From Solwaraspora sp. WMMD406 (GTDB taxonomy: Bacteria; Actinomycetota; Actinomycetes; Mycobacteriales; Micromonosporaceae): a DNA stretch of 64,000 nucleotides. The DNA is taken from positions 1,240,001 through 1,304,000 of the forward strand of contig NZ_JARUBF010000001.1 of the NCBI RefSeq assembly GCF_029626025.1, in the 5' to 3' direction. This document shows, in pieces, positions 45,760-53,207 of this stretch (position 1 is the stretch's first letter; every line of letters begins with the position of its first letter). A model generated the notes under the pieces. The model saw only the letters and a program-made list of their open reading frames with translations, was not told the DNA's origin and ran no database searches. A program made the position numbers and the translations under genes.

Positions 45760-45786
45760 CTGCTTCCTGACACGACCGCCGTCACG

Positions 45787-46670
45787 GAGGCTTATTCAGC
45801 AGGCCTCCGACCCGCTACAGTAGACCCCCAATAAAAGGACGATCCGCTCTTCCGTAGGATGGAGTTACCACACAACATCACAAAGAAAAGCGGACCGCCG
45901 AACATGTATCATACCACTGGCTTCACCACGGACCAGATCCGCGACCTCTGCGTGCTGGTCCGAGCGGAATGCCAGGATCTGGATGTGGAGCCGTGGCCCC
46001 CGGTCCTTGGTCTCTACCGCGCTGTCGTCGTCGCGTTGACCTACATGCGTCGCAACCGCGTCCAAGCGGAGATCGCCGAAGCACACGGCGTCTCCCAGCC
46101 GACGATCTCGCGAGCGGTCACCGGCATCACCCCGGTCCTCGATCGCGTGCTGACGGAGTTCGTACCGACAGCCGACGACCTCAGCCCGACCGACCAGTAC
46201 ATCGTCGACGGCACCCTGCTTCCCTGCTGGTCATGGCGCACGCACCGCTGTCTGTACTCCGGCAAGCACAAGACCACGGGCATGAGCGTCCAGGTCGCCT
46301 GCACCCTCGACGGCGCGCTCGCCTGGATCTCCGATCCCGTCACCGGCAACCACCACGACTCGTACGCGATCAACGACACCGGGGTCCTCGTCACCCTGAA
46401 TCCCGGAGACTGGATCGGTGACAAGGGCTACGTCGGCAACGGCATGATCACCCCGTACAAGAAGCCCAAAGGTGGCGAGCTCGCGGAATGGCAGAAGGAA
46501 TACAACAGGCAGGTCAACAAGATCCGCTGGGTTGTGGAACAGGTCGTCGCGAACCTGAAGACATGGCGGATCCTGCACACCGACTACCGCAGACCGCTCG
46601 CGACCTTCACAGAAACGATCTCCTGTGTTATCGGGTTGCACTTCTACAGGATGGCCTGTGAATAGACCTC
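45787..46670 (+). mobile_element. IS5-family insertion sequence, 884 bp
   Basis: Imperfect terminal inverted repeats are seen: left GAGGCTTATTCAGCAGGCC (45787-45805) and right, read inward, GAGGTCTATTCACAGGCC (46670-46653). The trinucleotide ACG flanks both ends (45784-45786 and 46671-46673), a likely target duplication. One intact transposase gene lies inside, with its stop codon within the right repeat, as in compact IS5-family elements. It sits between the mini-GntR gene and the four-gene helical operon. Confidence 0.82.
45859..46665 (+). CDS. IS5-family DDE transposase
   Basis: A 268-residue transposase: an HTH_Tnp_4-type domain (about 70-100, RRNRVQAEIAEAHGVSQPTISRAV) and a DDE_Tnp_4 nuclease domain. 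The catalytic acids are expected in IVDGTLLPCW (first Asp), IGDKGYVGNG (second Asp) and the C-terminal Glu of VVEQVVANLK. The gene is full-length for the family, so the element may be active. ATG 45859 is used; the internal ATG 45904, which begins MYHTTGF, may be the true start. Confidence 0.9.
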   Translation: MELPHNITKKSGPPNMYHTTGFTTDQIRDLCVLVRAECQDLDVEPWPPVLGLYRAVVVALTYMRRNRVQAEIAEAHGVSQPTISRAVTGITPVLDRVLTEFVPTADDLSPTDQYIVDGTLLPCWSWRTHRCLYSGKHKTTGMSVQVACTLDGALAWISDPVTGNHHDSYAINDTGVLVTLNPGDWIGDKGYVGNGMITPYKKPKGGELAEWQKEYNRQVNKIRWVVEQVVANLKTWRILHTDYRRPLATFTETISCVIGLHFYRMACE

Positions 46671-46753
46671 ACGGTCGAAGTGGGGACCACCGCCTTCGAT
46701 AGGCTCAACGGGAGCGGGTGGATGTCGCGGCGTGACCTCGGGGAGGCGACAGG

Positions 46754-47017
46754 GTGTCCAGCATTCAAGAAGTCAAAGCAGGTCTGGCGCAGGCGGCCCA
46801 GCACGGCAACGCGACGACCCAACAGATCCGAGCCGCCACCGACGCGCTTGATCGGATGATCGCCGGCCTCCGCGCGGCGGCGGCTGGGTCCGGTCACCCG
46901 TTGATCGGTGAGGCCATCAGCCGCTGCGAACAGAGTAAACAGCACCTCGCAGACGCGGCCGGCCTCGTCCAGGGCGCAGGCGAAGCCACCCGGAACTACA
47001 GCGGAATGCTTGGCTGA
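46754..47017 (+). CDS. Small helical protein (DUF6244/ESX-like), gene 1 of a four-gene operon
   Basis: An 87-residue acidic all-alpha protein predicted to form a helical hairpin; it has no signal peptide and no clear WxG turn. It resembles small actinobacterial proteins classed as DUF6244. The size and helix-loop-helix pattern recall the WXG100/ESX fold, but the motif is missing, so that link is only a guess. GTG 46754 follows GGGGAGG. It is the first gene of a compact operon that starts 84 bases beyond the IS element. Confidence 0.65.
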   Translation: MSSIQEVKAGLAQAAQHGNATTQQIRAATDALDRMIAGLRAAAAGSGHPLIGEAISRCEQSKQHLADAAGLVQGAGEATRNYSGMLG

Positions 47018-47028
47018 GCGCGGCTGAC

Positions 47029-47286
47029 ATGAGTGTCGACGACATCAAGCGGGACCTTGACCGCGCCAAGACCTTGATGACGCAGGGCAGGGCTGGCTTC
47101 GAGGGGGCGGCAGAGACAGGCGAACGCGGTACCGCTTTGGCATTCGCGACGGTGAGTGACAGTGCTGACGGCGAGGTCATGAAAGCGGCGGCGGCCTTGA
47201 AGGCAGCCGATGACGAGGTCGTCCGAGTCCTAACGCGGGTCGAGGCCGCTTTAGGGTTAGCCGACGCCTATCGGAAAGCGCTCTGA
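47029..47286 (+). CDS. Small helical protein, gene 2 of a four-gene operon
   Basis: An 85-residue all-alpha protein of unknown function (VDDIKRDLDRAKTLMTQGR ...). It is about the same length as the first gene product and has a similar helix-turn-helix outline, so the two may pair as heterodimers, as ESX partners do. It begins 11 bases after gene 1 and its stop overlaps the start of gene 3 (TGATG). No WxG motif is present. Confidence 0.65.
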   Translation: MSVDDIKRDLDRAKTLMTQGRAGFEGAAETGERGTALAFATVSDSADGEVMKAAAALKAADDEVVRVLTRVEAALGLADAYRKAL

Positions 47287-47912
47287 TGTCCTCCAGTATG
47301 GAGCAGGTCATCGCCCAGATGCAGCAGGCCAAAGATCAACTTGCCGAAGCTGCTGTGCGAGCGATGCGGGCCAAGGGAGACTTCGACGAAGCGTACAAGC
47401 TGTATTTCCAGCTGTCCGAAGGATCGGCGAACCCGGATATCAGCCGCGCCGCTTCGGAAGCTCAGATCGCCGCTGCCAAAGCTGGCAGATATGCCAACCT
47501 CCTCGATCGAGCGCAGCGCCACTACCAGGCATACTTCGCAAAAGTAGCCCCAGCTGCTGGTTTCAAAGAACCGTCGGGCATGCCTTCAGGTGAAGAGTTG
47601 ATCTCCGACACCGACCGTAGGCGCCGCAGGCAGGATGCGCTCTGGAGTCGTCAGGTTCAGAAAGCAGACGACATCCAAGATTCCTTCACGAACGCCGAGT
47701 CGCACGCGAAGGCTGTGTTCAAGAGTCTCCCGGATCCACCGGGCGCTACTAGCTCGCATCCAGTGAAGGCCGATCCTTCGCCTGTTGCTGACCGTGTAGA
47801 GGTTGACAATCCGATCACTGCTGCGGCGATGGCAGCCGGTGCAATGGCGGTCGCCGCAAAATCAATCTGGCAAGGTGTCAAGAAACGTCGAGAAAGGAAG
47901 CGGGCGCAATGA
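47286..47912 (+). CDS. Coiled-coil protein with possible C-terminal membrane segment, gene 3
   Basis: A 208-residue protein. The first 100 residues are helical and coiled-coil-like (MEQVIAQMQQAKDQLAEAAV), the middle is polar with KRRRRQ-type clusters, and an Ala/Met-rich stretch (about 176-195, ITAAAMAAGAMAVAAKSIW) could lie in a membrane, followed by a very basic end (KKRRERKRAQ). The first part resembles a longer version of the ESX/LXG helical fold. It overlaps the genes on both sides (TGATG and ATGA), which shows strong translational coupling. Confidence 0.65.
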   Translation: MSSSMEQVIAQMQQAKDQLAEAAVRAMRAKGDFDEAYKLYFQLSEGSANPDISRAASEAQIAAAKAGRYANLLDRAQRHYQAYFAKVAPAAGFKEPSGMPSGEELISDTDRRRRRQDALWSRQVQKADDIQDSFTNAESHAKAVFKSLPDPPGATSSHPVKADPSPVADRVEVDNPITAAAMAAGAMAVAAKSIWQGVKKRRERKRAQ

Positions 47913-48337
47913 CCCTGCACCCCGAGTTGCCAATGTACATCCGGACTTTGGTCCGAGGTGAGCATGAGCTCAATGACGAAATCGAAGCGAGGTTGGATCG
48001 AGACGGCTGGGACGGATTCCCGCGCTTCCTCGCGTCCCTTTTCTTCATCGCCGTTGATCGTAGATTCAGTGAAAATGCTCCGTCTGTCGAAATTATCCGC
48101 TTCGTCGCGGCGCTTCGCGAGGACTTGAGTCATGGTGGCCCTGATATCGATCCGATCGGCGCTGAGTCTTTGATCAGGTCTGTACTTGACCCGGCTGTTG
48201 ATTATGATTTGAAGCCAGAGATGATTACTAAGGTTCAAGCCGCCACCATGTACAAGATATTTTCGGAGGGTGACCTATCCGACGCCGAACTCGACGAGAT
48301 CCTCGCCGAAGCGACCGAATTCGCCATGCAGGACTAA
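47909..48337 (+). CDS. Acidic helical protein, gene 4 of a four-gene operon
   Basis: A 142-residue acidic, soluble protein with no recognised family; it starts with ATGA overlap on gene 3. It has no nuclease or transferase motif. A small acidic last gene after helical secretion-like proteins is the typical place for an immunity protein or chaperone, but this is a guess. Codon usage becomes less GC-rich along this gene, marking the approach to the low-GC cassette. Confidence 0.6.
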   Translation: MTLHPELPMYIRTLVRGEHELNDEIEARLDRDGWDGFPRFLASLFFIAVDRRFSENAPSVEIIRFVAALREDLSHGGPDIDPIGAESLIRSVLDPAVDYDLKPEMITKVQAATMYKIFSEGDLSDAELDEILAEATEFAMQD

Positions 48338-48501
48338 GGTCCGCTGCGCCCTTCATCGGTGGCTGAAGATGGCTACAGCTGTTCGTCCCAGCGCGCGTCA
48401 ATGAGCTTTGGCCGTCTATCCCCGCTCGTGCGGCTCGATTGACGTTGTGTCAGAATCCAACCTCGTTCAGACATCGAAAGTGGCGTAGGTGTCAATTGTG
48501 G

Positions 48502-48626
48502 ATGGCAGAGTTCCGGCTCAGCATCACCAGGGCTCTAGCCGACCAGTTGGAAGCCACGCTGGAGTCGTTGGGGCCGCTTGACGAAGGCCAACCTGGAAGC
48601 GGTCGACCAGGTGTCTACACTACTAG
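48502..48626 (+). pseudogene. Possible 5' fragment of a gene cut by the MITE
   Basis: From ATG 48502, 41 codons of plausible protein (MAEFRLSITRALADQLEATL, then GPLDE...RPGVYTT) run straight into the left end of the miniature element, after which the sequence is no longer protein-like. The PGVY at the break recalls the start of a GIY-YIG nuclease domain, but too little is left to claim it. It may be a small nuclease gene disrupted by insertion. Confidence 0.3.
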
Positions 48627-48694
48627 GAGGGTTATTCAGGCTAACGTCGAGCATAAGCTTGACCTGCGGCGATGTACACGCCTGAATAACCCTC
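48627..48694. mobile_element. 68-bp MITE-like element with IS5-family ends
   Basis: GAGGGTTATTCAGGC (48627-48641) is exactly repeated in inverse at 48680-48694. Both ends are flanked by TAG (48624-48626 and 48695-48697), a likely 3-bp target duplication. The tips match the resident IS5-family element (GAGGCTTATTCAG) at 12 of 13 bases, so this is probably a non-autonomous derivative moved by that or a related transposase. Confidence 0.8.
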
Positions 48695-48957
48695 TAGGTC
48701 GAGCTGAACAGTTCGTGCGCCTCCGTCTGTGCGGCGCTCACTTGAAATGCGATGAGGGCGAGTGCGAACCGCTGATCTGCTGGGTCGTAGTCGCCACCCC
48801 ATGACTTCCTCGCGGCTTCTATTGAGCCGATGACGCTGGCTGGTTCCCGCTGACGATGCCGGCGACCAAGGAAGTATTTCTCAAAGTAGATCAGAGCATC
48901 GCGCACCTCGGCAGCCCGAACTTCCCGCCGGAAGCGCTCGATCGTGGAGCGCAGCAA
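48694..48957 (-). CDS. Hypothetical protein ending at the MITE boundary
   Basis: An 87-residue frame, with start TTG 48957 and no good ribosome site. Its composition looks real (IERFRREVRAAEVRDALIYF; YDPADQRFALALIAFQ). Its stop codon, TAG, is formed by the target duplication next to the MITE, so the insertion may have shortened the C-terminus. The start region has no ATG, and the frame continues upstream as unlikely sequence, so it may be a gene remnant. No family recognised. Confidence 0.4.
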   Translation of the reverse strand: MLRSTIERFRREVRAAEVRDALIYFEKYFLGRRHRQREPASVIGSIEAARKSWGGDYDPADQRFALALIAFQVSAAQTEAHELFSST

Positions 48958-49291
48958 AGCGCGAGCACTGCGTCGACTCGCGAGACAACCTCGGACATTA
49001 TTGCGGCGGCTCTTAGGACCTGTCCGAGAGCGGCAGCAAGATGCCTTACATCGATCTGCCGTTCGGGGTCTTGGCCATCGAGTATGCGGCGGACGAAAAA
49101 GTCAACAGTCCATAACGACCTGTGCAGGCCTTCTGAATTTTTGTCCCTGACTCCGCCGACTCGCGCGACGATCTTTGATCGTTCCTGGCAATTATTCCAG
49201 ATATCGCGAGCGCGAATCGGTGGGACCAGTCTAAGAAAGTACTTGGTCAGTGGTTCTTGTGCCCGTCATAAACCCGGGGTATCATGCAACC

Positions 49292-50479
49292 ATGACAATA
49301 AGCGTTGTGGACCTGTTTTCTGGTGGCGGGGGAGCCAGCGCCGGTTTTGCTGCGCACCCGGAATTCGCCGTGGTTGGTGCGGCAGATGCTCAATTCGGAA
49401 AGCCCAGTAGTCCAAAGGGTAGTTTGGCATGTAACGCGACTTACTTGGCAAATCTCGGGATAACTCCGGTTACGGCAGACCTTGGCCTTTCGACTCCGAA
49501 TGAGCTGGCCGAAAAAATGAGGCTTCGATCGTCGCCCCAGGTGCTTATATCCTGCCCGCCGTGCACGGGATTCTCGCGCACCTTAGCTAAGAACCACCTA
49601 CGCGATGACCCCAGAAACAGTCTGGTGCGACGTACCGCAATCTTTGTCAAGGAGTGGAGGCCTGCTGTACTGGTAATGGAGAACGCCAGAGAGCTTGTTA
49701 TGGGTCGGTTCAGAGACCATCTTTCACTGCTTGTTTCCGACCTTAAAGAGATGAATTACAATGTGCGTTACTCAACTCACTTTTTGAACAAGTTCGGCCT
49801 TCCTCAGAAACGAGAGCGGGCGCTGGTCATCGCAGCCAGGCGAGGGCTACCGCTCTTCTCGTTAGAAGATCTTTGGCGCGGTTTTGAAGTGGATATCAAA
49901 GCTACTCATGTGAGAAGAGCGATCTGGCACCTCCCTGAGCTCGACGAGGGCGAGGCCGATCCTGGAGATAAAGAGCATGCCTGCCCTCGATTCTCCAGTG
50001 AGCTTGCCCGGGCCCGGACCTGTTTGATCCCGAAGGATGGCGGGTCCTGGTTCGATCTCTCTCGTGCTGCGACGTCAAACAGTATTGAATTGCTGACTCC
50101 TACGATGCGCGATCGTCTCGAGAAAGGAAATCTGGGTAGCCATCCAGACGTCTATGGACGAATGTGGTGGGACCGGCCGGCGCCAACCATAAAGCGTGAA
50201 TGCTCACATGTTGGGAATGGACGATACACTCATCCAGAGCAGGATCGTTTATGCTCGGTCCGTGAGATGGCGATTCTCAACGGATTTCCATCTTCATACA
50301 GGTTTCTTGGGAGCATCAACAATATGTATCGGCACGTCGGGGATGCGGTGCCGCCCTTGATTAGCTACCAACTCGCTGGCTTAGTGAGCTGGATGATATC
50401 TGGGCGGAGGCCGGAGATGGATCAGTTGGTCATGCCCGGTACCCACTTGACTTCTGACGATATCCGAAGGCTGCCATGA
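49292..50479 (+). CDS. DNA (cytosine-5-)-methyltransferase
   Basis: A 395-residue C5 methyltransferase of a type II restriction-modification system. Motif I is DLFSGGGGASAGF, the catalytic Cys is in CPPCTGFSR (motif IV), ENARELV is motif VI, GLPQKRERALV is motif VIII and VGDAVPPLISYQLA is motif X. ATG 49292 is used because the family begins a few residues before motif I. The target recognition region lies about 215-310 and its site is not predictable. ATGA overlap couples it to the Vsr gene. Codons are AT-richer than the core genome, a sign of transfer. Confidence 0.95.
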   Translation: MTISVVDLFSGGGGASAGFAAHPEFAVVGAADAQFGKPSSPKGSLACNATYLANLGITPVTADLGLSTPNELAEKMRLRSSPQVLISCPPCTGFSRTLAKNHLRDDPRNSLVRRTAIFVKEWRPAVLVMENARELVMGRFRDHLSLLVSDLKEMNYNVRYSTHFLNKFGLPQKRERALVIAARRGLPLFSLEDLWRGFEVDIKATHVRRAIWHLPELDEGEADPGDKEHACPRFSSELARARTCLIPKDGGSWFDLSRAATSNSIELLTPTMRDRLEKGNLGSHPDVYGRMWWDRPAPTIKRECSHVGNGRYTHPEQDRLCSVREMAILNGFPSSYRFLGSINNMYRHVGDAVPPLISYQLAGLVSWMISGRRPEMDQLVMPGTHLTSDDIRRLP

Positions 50480-51156
50480 AGCCACCCGCAAGCTCGGCCG
50501 GTGTCTCTGATCGAATGCGCAAGCAGAAGTCATTCGATACGGAGTTGGAGTTGAGTCTGCGCCGTAAGCTTTATCAGCGTGGGTTGCGGTACCGTGTGCA
50601 TAGTCAGGCCGTTCCGGGTACGAGGCGAACGATCGACATAGCTTTTCTCTCCGCGAAGGTTGCCGTCTTCCTTGACGGATGCTTTTGGCATGGATGTCCA
50701 ATTCATGGCACCTCGCCGAAGGCCAATTCCAAATGGTGGGCGGACAAGATTAGCGAAAATCAGAGACGGGATGTCGATACCAATCGGCGGATGGAGAATG
50801 CCGGCTGGCTTGTGGTCCGTGTTTGGGGACACCAGGATCTAGAGAGAGCGGCTGCGGAGGTTGAAAGAATAGTTCGCGAGCGTCGACCTCTACGGAAGCC
50901 AGTCGAAGGTTCTGCGGATTCCGCATCACACGGAACTGTCTCTGCGTATCGCGGGTCCGGGTGTCGTTGTCAGGAATGCAAGTCTGCGAACGCGGTGTAT
51001 CAGCGACAATTGCGAAATAAGTATAGAAGTGAGGGTGGAAGGGGGCAACATGGTACGGACTACCGATACCGGACAGGCTGCCGTTGCGACGCTTGCAGAT
51101 CTGCTCACGCGGCTGAAGATCGGGCCTATCGAGAACGGCGAAGGCTGACCCTGTAA
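50476..51156 (+). CDS. Very short patch repair endonuclease with cysteine-rich C-terminal repeats
   Basis: A 226-residue protein. Residues 12-140 are a Vsr endonuclease (RMRKQKSFDTELELSLR, RTIDIAFLSAKVAVFLDGCFWHGCP, NQRRDVDTNRRMENAGW), which nicks next to T:G mismatches caused by deamination of 5-methylcytosine. The rest, unlike ordinary Vsr, has two repeats of about 35 residues, each HGT followed by a tyrosine segment and GCRCxxC+SA: one near 152-185, one near 192-224. These four-cysteine patterns look like small zinc modules known from actinobacterial and phage nucleases. ATG 50476 overlaps the methyltransferase stop. Confidence 0.93.
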   Translation: MKPPASSAGVSDRMRKQKSFDTELELSLRRKLYQRGLRYRVHSQAVPGTRRTIDIAFLSAKVAVFLDGCFWHGCPIHGTSPKANSKWWADKISENQRRDVDTNRRMENAGWLVVRVWGHQDLERAAAEVERIVRERRPLRKPVEGSADSASHGTVSAYRGSGCRCQECKSANAVYQRQLRNKYRSEGGRGQHGTDYRYRTGCRCDACRSAHAAEDRAYRERRRLTL

Positions 51157-51197
51157 CATTTACCCTCGCAGTACAGCGCTCGCGAGGAGTATTTTTA

Positions 51198-51971
51198 GTG
51201 CCAGATGATAGCCAGCGGTCTCGTCTTGTAGGGATTATCGAACAACTCCGCGATGTCCAGATCGGCAGGCTACTGCAGCTTGCCGAAGCCATTGCGACAC
51301 CCATTGCGTGTCGGATTGATGATAGGTCAATCATGGTGACCCCTGAGTTCGCCGACGAATTCGGGGCGAGGCTGAGCGTCCATCATGCGACACACAGCAA
51401 GCAGCTAGATCGTGTCGGCCTCGAGGACGCCCTGCGGGCTGCTTCTCGTGCGGCTGGTCGGCGTGTTAACGGTCCGATGGGCGCTACACGTCGGTTTATT
51501 GATGAGATTATCGATGGAGAGAAAGTCGCTATTAAGAGCACTGCAGCAAAGGATGTTAGCAAGAACTTCGTGCATATTAGCAAGATGTCCGAGGCGTCAT
51601 GGATCCAGGACGTGAGGGGTCCTCAGGCCAGGGAGGGTAGGACTAAGCAGCACTTTCGTGAATACATATCGGAGGTGGATCGTTTGATACAGATGCGGAC
51701 CATCCCGGATCGTGTTAGCTGGGTCTATCAGCTTGTTGAGATTCCAATGGAGCTTCTAAGTCCAATTTTGGAACTTGGGCGAGTGCATTTTGCGCCAGAT
51801 GGCCCTCGTATCGAGGTGTCCGACTCGCGAGGTCCGTGTCTTACGCTTATCTTGGATCGCAGTGACGCTAAAATTACTTTGAGTCGTATACCGCTGGTGC
51901 GGTGCCTCGTGCATGCGGAATGGACCTTGCCAAAGCGCGTCGGAGATGCCGGATTTGCAACGGACTCTTAG
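51198..51971 (+). CDS. Candidate type II restriction endonuclease
   Basis: A 257-residue protein not recognised by family. It directly follows the C5 methyltransferase and Vsr genes and shares their low-GC codon use, the usual place for the cognate restriction enzyme. FIDEIIDGEKVAIKSTAAKD (about 98-117) resembles a PD-(D/E)xK core: an acidic pair, then E-x-K (here VAIKST). GTG 51198 follows GAGGAG by about 10 bases. The assignment rests mainly on context. Confidence 0.6.
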   Translation: MPDDSQRSRLVGIIEQLRDVQIGRLLQLAEAIATPIACRIDDRSIMVTPEFADEFGARLSVHHATHSKQLDRVGLEDALRAASRAAGRRVNGPMGATRRFIDEIIDGEKVAIKSTAAKDVSKNFVHISKMSEASWIQDVRGPQAREGRTKQHFREYISEVDRLIQMRTIPDRVSWVYQLVEIPMELLSPILELGRVHFAPDGPRIEVSDSRGPCLTLILDRSDAKITLSRIPLVRCLVHAEWTLPKRVGDAGFATDS

Positions 51972-52100
51972 GTGCGGCGTACGGCAGGCGGCGGTTGCCT
52001 GGGTGGCACATGGCAGGGCGAGGAGCCAGAGGAGGTGGTGGCGTGTGACGGGCAGACTGGGGTATTCATCGTTCAGGTGGGATATCATCGCGTCGTGGCG

Positions 52101-52499
52101 ATGGATGATGGTGGGCAGTGTGTGACGGCGAACGTCGCGGCGGGGATGACGCCGGCTGTGGCGCTGTTCCGGTCGTTGGCCGACGAAACCCGGCTGCGGA
52201 TCGTACGGCGGCTCGCGGCCGGCGAAGCGCGGGTCGTGGACCTCACCGGCGCGCTCGGGCTGGCGCAGTCGACCGTGTCGAAGCACCTCGCCTGCCTGCG
52301 TGACTGCGGCCTGATCGACTACCGGGTCGAGGGGCGGCAGTCGTTCTACTCGCTGACCCGCCCCGAACTGATGGACCTGCTCCAAGCCGCCGAAGGGGTG
52401 CTGGCGGCCACCGGCGACGCCGTCGACCTCTGCCCGACGTACGGCACGGGTCCGGCGTACGGCAGCGGCACGACGAGCACGACGGCGCTGCCACGATGA
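52101..52499 (+). CDS. ArsR family metal sensor, CmtR-like
   Basis: A 132-residue winged-helix regulator. The recognition helix region holds KHLACLRDCGLIDY, whose two cysteines spaced CLRDC match the Cd/Pb-binding pair of mycobacterial CmtR, and a third cysteine (VDLCPTYG) lies in the C-terminal tail, as CmtR requires. It should release DNA when Cd(II) or Pb(II) binds. The neighbouring CDF exporter overlaps its stop codon (ATGA). ATG 52101 or GTG 52122 may be the start; neither has a strong ribosome site. Confidence 0.85.
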   Translation: MDDGGQCVTANVAAGMTPAVALFRSLADETRLRIVRRLAAGEARVVDLTGALGLAQSTVSKHLACLRDCGLIDYRVEGRQSFYSLTRPELMDLLQAAEGVLAATGDAVDLCPTYGTGPAYGSGTTSTTALPR

Positions 52500-53125
52500 G
52501 TGTCACCACGTCGACCCTGGCCCCGCAGCGGCGAGCCCGACTCAACCGGCGCAGCCTGCACCTGGCCTACGCCACCGCCGGCTACAACCTGCTCGAAGGC
52601 GTCGTCGCGGTCGCGGCCGGCGCGGCGGCCTCGTCGACCGCGCTGCTCGGCTTCGGCCTCGACTCCTTCATCGAGGTGTCCTCCGCGCTGGTGGTGATCT
52701 GGCAGTTCCGCTCCCGGCTGCCCGAGACCCGGGAACGGCTCGCGCTGCGGCTGATCGCAGTGTCGTTCTTCGCCCTCGCCGGATGGGTCGGCTTCGACGC
52801 GGCCCGGTCCCTGCTGGGCCAGGGCGAGGCGGCACCGTCCCCGGTCGGCATCGGGCTTGCCGCCGTCTCCGTGGTCGTGATGCCGCTGCTGGTCTGGGCC
52901 AAACGCCGTACCGGGCGGGAACTCGGCTCGGCGACCGTGGTCGCCGACTCCACCCAGACCCTGCTCTGCACCTACCTGTCCGCGATCCTGCTCGTCGGCC
53001 TGGTCCTCAACGCCTGGCTGGGCTGGGCGTGGGCCGACCCGATCGCCGGCCTGGTCATCGCCGCCGTCGCCGTACGCGAAGGGGTCGAAGCCTGGCGGGG
53101 CGAGCAGTGCGACGACTGCTGCTGA
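52496..53125 (+). CDS. CDF-type cation efflux protein lacking the cytosolic domain
   Basis: A 209-residue inner-membrane transporter with about six spans. The family signature lies in ALLGFGLDSFIEVSSALVV (about 50-68), with metal-binding acidic residues there and in VVADSTQTLLCT. It ends at CDDCC, a possible metal-binding tip, and lacks the usual C-terminal regulatory domain. It is translationally coupled to the CmtR-like regulator, so cadmium, lead or zinc efflux is the likely job. Confidence 0.88.
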   Translation: MSVTTSTLAPQRRARLNRRSLHLAYATAGYNLLEGVVAVAAGAAASSTALLGFGLDSFIEVSSALVVIWQFRSRLPETRERLALRLIAVSFFALAGWVGFDAARSLLGQGEAAPSPVGIGLAAVSVVVMPLLVWAKRRTGRELGSATVVADSTQTLLCTYLSAILLVGLVLNAWLGWAWADPIAGLVIAAVAVREGVEAWRGEQCDDCC

Positions 53126-53207
53126 GCGCGGAGTCCGGCGACGGCGGTGTGGTTGACTGGGTGAGACCGTACGCGGGGCGGCGTGAGCCGGAGGAGGTGG
53201 CGGCGCG

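What the first reader, a model, noticed from the sequence alone, without database searches (positions are those of the whole stretch)
49292..51971. Low-GC Dcm-Vsr cassette with an unrecognised candidate restriction enzyme
A C5 methyltransferase, a Vsr nuclease and a 257-residue unknown protein form one AT-richer cassette. The unknown protein has an acidic/E-x-K segment like a PD-(D/E)xK core and no recognised family, so it may be a new type II restriction enzyme.
Basis: partly seen in the sequence, partly recalled or inferred. Interest (0 to 1): 0.7.

Follow-up and report, generated by a model that had tools for sequence, protein, structure and literature searches.

The report
SmaI-type restriction system with repair nuclease
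The genes are a bacterial DNA-defence operon of a known general kind: the 'unknown' protein belongs to the family of the laboratory restriction enzyme SmaI, teamed here with a different class of DNA methyltransferase and a mismatch-repair nuclease, and the whole operon probably acts at the sequence CCCGGG.

Summary
The 257-residue protein is in Pfam SmaI (PF17411; E 2.5e-8, 34.1 bits, cut-off 27.3) and fits a PADLOC type II REase model (E 3.3e-18). Its model is confident (pLDDT 93) with a PD-(D/E)xK-like order of elements and invariant Asp102/Lys113, but structure matches are weak. The C5 MTase belongs to a clade found near SmaI-family REases in 29 of 80 genome loci (10 of the 29 also with Vsr), and with XcyI/TspMI-like REases on Thermus plasmids. 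Both REase types point to CCCGGG, and the Thermus MTase has exactly the motif published for M.TspMI. So: an m5C type II R-M operon, probably CCCGGG-specific, with a Vsr guard. Variant details: a SmaI-family REase with a C5 instead of an N4 MTase; a Vsr with two Cys-rich repeats; a CCCGGG box next to a -10-like element at the MTase start, identically placed in the nearest complete system seen, but not enriched across the clade.

The parts
49292..50479 (+). C5-cytosine DNA methyltransferase, 395 aa, M.TspMI-like clade; predicted to make 5-methylcytosine in CCCGGG
   Evidence: Pfam DNA_methylase E 1.4e-36, 127 bits; PCT, EN and QxRxR motifs kept and YGRx8TIx9GRxTH in the recognition region; clade pairing census
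50476..51156 (+). Vsr-type mismatch endonuclease, 226 aa; start overlaps the MTase stop
   Evidence: Pfam Vsr 60.2 bits (cut-off 27), NCBIfam TIGR00632 108.6 bits (cut-off 97.85), alignment to solved DNA mismatch endonuclease 1cw0
50929..51153 (+). C-terminal tail of the Vsr with two HGTxxYR.GCRCxxC-like repeats (putative metal-binding module; inference)
   Evidence: motif scan, alignment with L016; low-confidence model with one helix per repeat
51198..51971 (+). SmaI-family type II restriction endonuclease, 257 aa
   Evidence: Pfam SmaI PF17411 E 2.5e-8; PADLOC REase_II E 3.3e-18 over residues 6-242; alignment of 29; model pLDDT 93.1, pTM 0.88
49257..49294 (+). putative promoter and own-site element: TTGTGC (49257-49262), CCCGGG (49273-49278), TATCAT (49280-49285), six bases, ATG 49292
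   Evidence: read from sequence; same CCCGGG-N-TANNNT-N6-ATG layout in L016; only match in the window; the simple promoter scan did not list it
51184..51189 (+). GAGGAG, likely ribosome-binding site of the REase gene
   Evidence: read from sequence

Best explanation
A three-gene type II restriction-modification operon. The MTase puts 5-methylcytosine into the host's copies of the recognition site, most likely CCCGGG; the SmaI-family nuclease, a PD-(D/E)xK-variant enzyme, cuts unmethylated copies in incoming DNA; the Vsr nicks at the T:G mismatches that arise when 5-methylcytosine deaminates in the site, so that repair restores C:G. Shown here: family membership of all three, operon-like layout, recurrence of the pair, conservation of motif residues. 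Inferred: the CCCGGG site, cleavage, the Vsr target. More speculative: the CCCGGG box one base from the -10-like element of the MTase gene lets methylation of, or MTase binding to, its own site set the operon's expression.
For: Families over curated Pfam cut-offs, Vsr also over NCBIfam's; REase aligns with 28 relatives, 13 invariant columns including Asp102 and Lys113; model 93.1 pLDDT with helix 72-85, strands 103-105, 108-116, 124-132, helix 142-159, strand 162-170; two best Foldseek hits are chains of one restriction endonuclease. SmaI-family REase near this MTase in 29 of 80 genome loci, Vsr in 10 of the 29, plus L005 and L010. Distances of MTase and REase correlate, r 0.74, 0 of 5000 permutations. 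Site: SmaI CCC|GGG and XmaI C|CCGGG (passages of PMC4081073); same MTase clade with XcyI/TspMI-like REase and Vsr in L011, L012; M.TspMI is named as recognising CCCGGG, with motif YGRx8TIx9GRxLH, in a section on C5 MTases (PMC2413257, section 6 read), exactly the motif of L011/L012 and one residue off in the window. Own-site box shared with L016.
Against: No cleavage or methylation data. Host genome is not specially poor in CCCGGG: observed/expected 0.84 in a 400 kb sample, 0.72 in a congener in which no copy of this MTase or REase was found: no sign of long-term restriction. The published motif is nearly the same in GTCGAC enzymes, so it does not fix the site alone. The XcyI match of the Thermus REases is weak (E 0.0023 and 0.0025, under cut-off 25) and their identity with TspMI is inferred. 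CCCGGG is not enriched in the 200 bases upstream of the MTase in 37 loci with an REase (3 seen, and two of the three are the window and L016; 3.49 expected); 7 seen and 4.49 expected in 34 loci without. The 69% relative in G737 has neither box, Vsr nor REase in the 6.5 kb read. Foldseek found nothing at E <= 0.001. A SmaI-family REase is missing from 51 of the 80 loci of the MTase clade (48 with neither REase nor Vsr, 2 Vsr alone, 1 XcyI/TspMI-like).
Confidence: 0.75

Rival explanations
1. Same kind of R-M operon but another recognition site (for example GTCGAC, or a degenerate or different GC-rich palindrome): SmaI-family members may have drifted in specificity.
For: REase only 21-57% identical to its 28 aligned relatives and only 34 bits to the Pfam SmaI model; MTase motif shape is shared with GTCGAC enzymes; no CCCGGG depletion beyond that of a congener.
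Against: The MTase recognition region is much conserved across a clade paired with two different REase families, SmaI-like and XcyI/TspMI-like, whose known common property is CCCGGG; own-site CCCGGG box also in L016.
Confidence: 0.2
2. The operon is present but the nuclease is silent or dead, and the MTase with Vsr acts as a solitary epigenetic pair.
For: Many relatives of the MTase look solitary: of 80 genome loci 48 have neither REase nor Vsr within the DNA held, 33 of them in one conserved neighbourhood; G737 copy likewise. Position 115, Glu in many relatives, is Thr here.
Against: REase frame intact, with all 13 invariant residues and a likely ribosome-binding site; Ser or Thr at 115 occurs in other intact members (L016, L021, L024, L033, L089).
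Confidence: 0.08
3. One reading: a new, unrecognised family of restriction enzyme.
For: No NCBIfam model up to E 1, no PDB sequence relative up to E 10, no Foldseek hit at E <= 0.001.
Against: Over the curated Pfam SmaI cut-off; PADLOC REase_II model over residues 6-242; its neighbour L016 also over the Pfam cut-off, 43.3 bits.
Confidence: 0.03

Closest known systems
R.SmaI family (Pfam PF17411)
   Same: Sequence family over cut-off; conserved Asp...Lys core; near an MTase gene
   Different: Divergent; the classical partner M.SmaI is listed as a cytosine-4 (N4) MTase (table passage in PMC8557920), and relatives L007 and L008 sit beside N6_N4_Mtase genes; here the partner is a C5 MTase
TspMI R-M system (CCCGGG, PMC2413257; cut position and kinship with XmaI recalled)
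   Same: MTase motif, and by inference clade; the Thermus relatives in L011/L012 also have a Vsr gene
   Different: REase in L011/L012 is XcyI/TspMI-like, 378-379 aa, not SmaI-family; Vsr gene on the opposite strand and 138 aa, without the tail
E. coli Dcm-Vsr (recalled system)
   Same: C5 MTase plus Vsr as overlapping genes; Vsr core alignable to solved 1cw0 (its E. coli origin recalled)
   Different: Dcm is solitary and CCWGG-specific (recalled); here an REase gene follows; Vsr has a C-terminal Cys-rich tail; Asp stands where 1cw0 has the first His of HGCFWH
CfrBI system (expression control by methylation of its own site)
   Same: Own recognition site as a control element (only the title of Beletskaya 2000 seen, in the reference list of PMC3874152)
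   Different: Here only a sequence layout in two systems, no expression data

Membership tests
Type II restriction-modification system | Neighbouring MTase and REase genes, both intact | tested here: met
   Frames and motifs intact; pair recurs in 29 of 80 loci
Type II restriction-modification system | MTase and REase share one recognition site; REase cuts unmethylated DNA | not testable with these tools
   Needs methylome and cleavage assay
SmaI family (PF17411) | Profile score over the curated cut-off | tested here: met
   34.1 against 27.3 bits, residues 17-188 to profile 8-178 of 240
SmaI family (PF17411) | Alignment over the whole length with conserved putative catalytic residues | tested here: met
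   A3, 29 sequences, Asp102, Lys113, Lys129, Glu132 invariant, Glu or Asp at 76 in all rows
SmaI family (PF17411) | CCC|GGG cleavage with blunt ends | not testable with these tools
   Inferred from family and MTase clade only
PD-(D/E)xK nuclease fold | alpha-beta-beta-beta-alpha-beta core with Asp and (D/E)xK (definition recalled) | tested here: inconclusive
   Order of elements fits, Asp102 and Lys113 in place, acid at 111 missing; structural matches weak, best E 4.2e-3, TM about 0.3
M.TspMI-like C5 MTase | YGRx8TIx9GRxLH in the recognition region | tested here: inconclusive
   All but one position: Thr for Leu in the window; exact in L011/L012 (motif from PMC2413257); motif nearly shared with GTCGAC enzymes
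Vsr endonuclease (PF03852 / TIGR00632) | Profile scores over both curated cut-offs | tested here: met
   60.2 over 27 and 108.6 over 97.85 bits
Long-held orthodox type II system (PMC4687349 abstract and passages) | Recognition site under-represented in the host (secondary trait, about half of cases in that paper) | tested here: not met
   CCCGGG observed/expected 0.84 in host sample, 0.72 in congener sample

The most novel reading that the evidence does not exclude
A widespread, so far unnamed subtype of CCCGGG restriction-modification in which SmaI-family nucleases have exchanged their N4 methyltransferase for a TspMI-type C5 methyltransferase and, in part of the clade, recruited Vsr to pay the resulting mutation cost; in the sublineage of this window the system also reads its own methylation state through a CCCGGG box next to the -10 element at the MTase start, and its Vsr carries a Cys-rich module shared with actinobacterial integrases.
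Probability: 0.3. Interest if true: 0.5.

Novelty: new member of a known kind. Interest (0 to 1): 0.32.

Why it matters
It removes a claimed new enzyme family and replaces it with a testable assignment (CCCGGG, m5C). It adds a clear case of one REase family serving with two chemically different MTase classes, and one MTase clade serving with two REase families, which bears on how R-M pairs are shuffled. The MTase-Vsr-REase operon also lets one ask whether Vsr follows the change from N4 to C5 methylation, which makes deamination mutagenic.

Tried and rejected
Rejected: 'unrecognised family'. Rejected: site avoidance as proof of CCCGGG (376 seen, 448.8 expected in the host sample; 419 and 583.6 in the congener sample). 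Rejected: a clade-wide own-site promoter rule (71 of 92 loci could be scored; the 21 dropped, because the start motif of the MTase was not found, all lack an REase). Weak: structure search. Nothing found: PDB sequence search of the REase, single-protein scan of genome contigs with the REase, phage records with the REase. PF17411 is rare: 3 of 396 sampled genomes of the phylum, this one included; a match to this REase in 3 of 300 genomes of the family, this one included. Paper searches bearing on novelty; judged from the listings, none reports a SmaI-family REase with a C5 MTase, but REBASE and most subscription journals are not held, so this is no proof of absence.

Limits: the 29 loci with a SmaI-family REase include one cut by a contig end (L026) and one in two pieces (L029), both left out of alignment A3; 'near' means in the same fetched DNA (in L017 about 1 kb apart; in L081 the Vsr lies next to a second MTase). 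The Mantel test uses raw distances of 31 systems and does not separate shared ancestry from functional coupling; the fused MTase of L091 was cut to 400 residues there. The 48 loci without REase or Vsr were judged only on the DNA held, some of it ended by contigs. By equal contig length L006 and L082 are one locus, and L245/L315 and L084 another; L011 and L012 are near-identical. One search covered a pattern taken from the two sequences that it found, so it shows rarity elsewhere (315 loci, 3.1 Mb), not an independent test. Vsr tail model has low confidence. The P-C-T form of motif IV was noted and not pursued.

Full report
What is there. The three ORFs exist as described: MTase 49292-50479, Vsr 50476-51156 (ATGA overlap with the MTase stop), third gene 51198-51971 with GAGGAG eight bases before its GTG. 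GC is 54-56% in the three genes and about 70% in the window. The low-GC stretch starts earlier, near 47.3 kb, and 46689-48330 has a counterpart (73% identical) at the same place in congener G428, in which neither this REase nor this MTase was found. So the cassette lies in a variable site and is not the only AT-rich part of it.

The third protein. Pfam assigns it to SmaI, PF17411 (E 2.5e-8, 34.1 bits, cut-off 27.3; residues 17-188), and PADLOC to a type II REase model (E 3.3e-18, residues 6-242). NCBIfam has no match. Twenty-eight relatives, 27 from genome contigs and one from a viral contig, align with it: 13 columns are invariant, among them Asp102, Lys113, Lys129 and Glu132, and position 76 is Glu or Asp in all rows. 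The AlphaFold2 model (pLDDT 93.1, pTM 0.88) has, from residue 72 to 170, helix, three strands, helix, strand, the order known from PD-(D/E)xK nucleases (recalled), with Asp102 before the first strand and Lys113 in the second. The usual acid two residues before the lysine is Ala or Ser in all 29, so another acid (Glu132 or position 76) may replace it; this is inference. Foldseek gave no hit at E <= 0.001; the two best of 809 were two chains of one restriction endonuclease, 3ndh (E 4.2e-3 and 4.8e-3, TM about 0.3), and several of the next are unrelated histidine kinases.

The methyltransferase and its clade. The MTase has the C5 motifs. A scan of genome contigs with an eight-member alignment confirmed 218 relatives, of which the best 80 were kept. 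In these 80 loci, with profiles built here, 29 have a SmaI-family REase (10 of them also Vsr), 1 an XcyI/TspMI-like REase, 2 Vsr alone, 48 neither within the DNA held. MTase and REase distances over 31 systems correlate (r 0.74, 0 of 5000 permutations, largest permuted 0.24). The nearest complete system seen, L016 (Humibacillus MAG, MTase 66% and REase 57% identical), has the same order MTase, Vsr with tail, SmaI-family REase.

Why CCCGGG. SmaI cuts CCC|GGG and XmaI C|CCGGG (passages of PMC4081073). The same MTase clade sits on two Thermus plasmids with a Vsr gene and an REase that fits a PADLOC REase model over its full length (893 and 901 bits) and, weakly, Pfam RE_XcyI (E 0.0023 and 0.0025, below cut-off); that XcyI is of the XmaI/Cfr9I kind is recalled. 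The BsaHI paper (PMC2413257, passage and section 6 read), writing of C5 MTases, gives M.TspMI, recognising CCCGGG, the motif YGRx8TIx9GRxLH, and says that GTCGAC enzymes have nearly the same. The Thermus MTases have it exactly; the window has Thr for Leu. Thus one MTase clade serves two REase families whose known common property is CCCGGG. The classical enzymes M.SmaI, M.Cfr9I and M.XcyI are listed as cytosine-4 MTases (table passage in PMC8557920), and SmaI-family relatives L007 and L008 sit beside N6_N4_Mtase genes. The window system is therefore a SmaI-family REase with a different modification chemistry.

Vsr. Both curated cut-offs are passed. Aligned with 1cw0, the Asp of the core and the FWH histidine are kept, while the first His of HGCFWH is Asp, as in 6 of the 14 other Vsr proteins aligned (L016, L021, L030, L033, L049, L082). 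The tail holds two HGT..Y..CRCxxC repeats; L016 has the same tail, the other 13 aligned do not. In 101 genomes of the host's family 13, this one included, have a match to the tail. The family is Micromonosporaceae if G406 is Actinocatenispora rupis, as the equal contig length of L006 and L082 suggests. Of eleven such loci read, nine are integrase-like ORFs with one repeat (by eye; one confirmed by Pfam), one (L233) is another Vsr with two repeats at its N-terminus (Pfam), one is a short ORF.

Own-site box. CCCGGG at 49273-49278 lies one base from TATCAT and 19 bases before the MTase ATG, with TTGTGC 17 bases before TATCAT. L016 has CCCGGG-N-TANNNT-N6-ATG at the same distance, while the 140 bases before the ATG agree at 29% in that register (20-32% in shifted registers), i.e. 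at chance level. The pattern occurs in 2 of 315 loci held, L016 and L209 (the window's own gene), and once in the window, in 0 of 100 shuffles. Against it: no enrichment in 37 loci with an REase (3 seen, two of them the window and L016; 3.49 expected), 7 seen and 4.49 expected in 34 loci without; no box in the 69% relative of G737, which also lacks Vsr and REase in the 6.5 kb read; the promoter scan did not list it; and the pattern was chosen after seeing it. I hold own-site control at about one in three.

Host and site. The MTase is in 1 of 7 genomes of the genus. CCCGGG is not depleted more than in a congener. This fits recent gain (PMC4687349, abstract and passages seen, links avoidance with lifespan) but is no support for the site. 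At the same place other congeners carry other C5 MTase and Vsr genes (G487, G473), a C5 MTase (G454), or an SRA domain gene (G428, G499, G508).

Verdict. A real, probably working type II R-M operon with Vsr; REase of a known family; site CCCGGG at about 0.75. New member of a known kind, with variant features that deserve a short test.

Noticed in passing
window 45760-53140 and L226-L231 (same place in six congeners): Variable defence site: C5 MTase genes in G000, G487 (two), G473, G454, and an SRA domain gene (SRA-HNH in G428 by Pfam), likely 5-methylcytosine-directed, in G428, G499, G508; never both at this place in 7 of 7 genomes. G428 and G508 do have C5 MTase matches elsewhere. G487 also has AIPR, Z1 and GHKL ATPase genes here.
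   Followed up: partly
33 loci between L031 and L094 (Lentzea, Saccharothrix, Umezawaea, Actinosynnema and a Nocardia sp.): Copies of this MTase clade without REase or Vsr in a conserved neighbourhood, followed by a gene whose product, in the one tested (L036), has a thioester domain (TED). Looks like a fixed, orphan C5 MTase worth a methylome test.
   Followed up: partly
L091:4869-6818 (Syntrophobacteraceae MAG): C5 MTase and SmaI-family REase in one 650-residue open frame, i.e. a fused R-M protein, next to a Vsr gene.
   Followed up: partly
L233:1024-1797 and L235-L243: The Cys-rich HGT..CRCxxC repeat of the Vsr tail also sits at the N-terminus of another Vsr and singly inside integrase-like ORFs.
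   Followed up: partly
L244/L314 (G737:C52): Closest MTase found (69%) has no Vsr, REase or CCCGGG box in the 6.5 kb read; the gene before it looks like a flavoprotein by eye.
   Followed up: yes
window 45781-46671: Transposase-bearing element (DDE_Tnp_4; IS5 by an NCBIfam match under its cut-off) with at least seven further about 100% copies in this genome.
   Followed up: no
400 kb samples of G000 (L165-L184) and G428 (L185-L204): CTCGAG (observed/expected 0.22 and 0.24) and CCGCGG (0.29 and 0.37) are strongly depleted in both genomes; cause not examined.
   Followed up: no
window 46754-48337: Four small ORFs, the three scanned without a Pfam match over cut-off, with counterparts in congener G428 at the same place.
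   Followed up: no
L014 (Polymorphobacter plasmid): MTase of this clade with Vsr and a TspMI-like REase beside a CBASS-type cyclase and a DndB gene.
   Followed up: no
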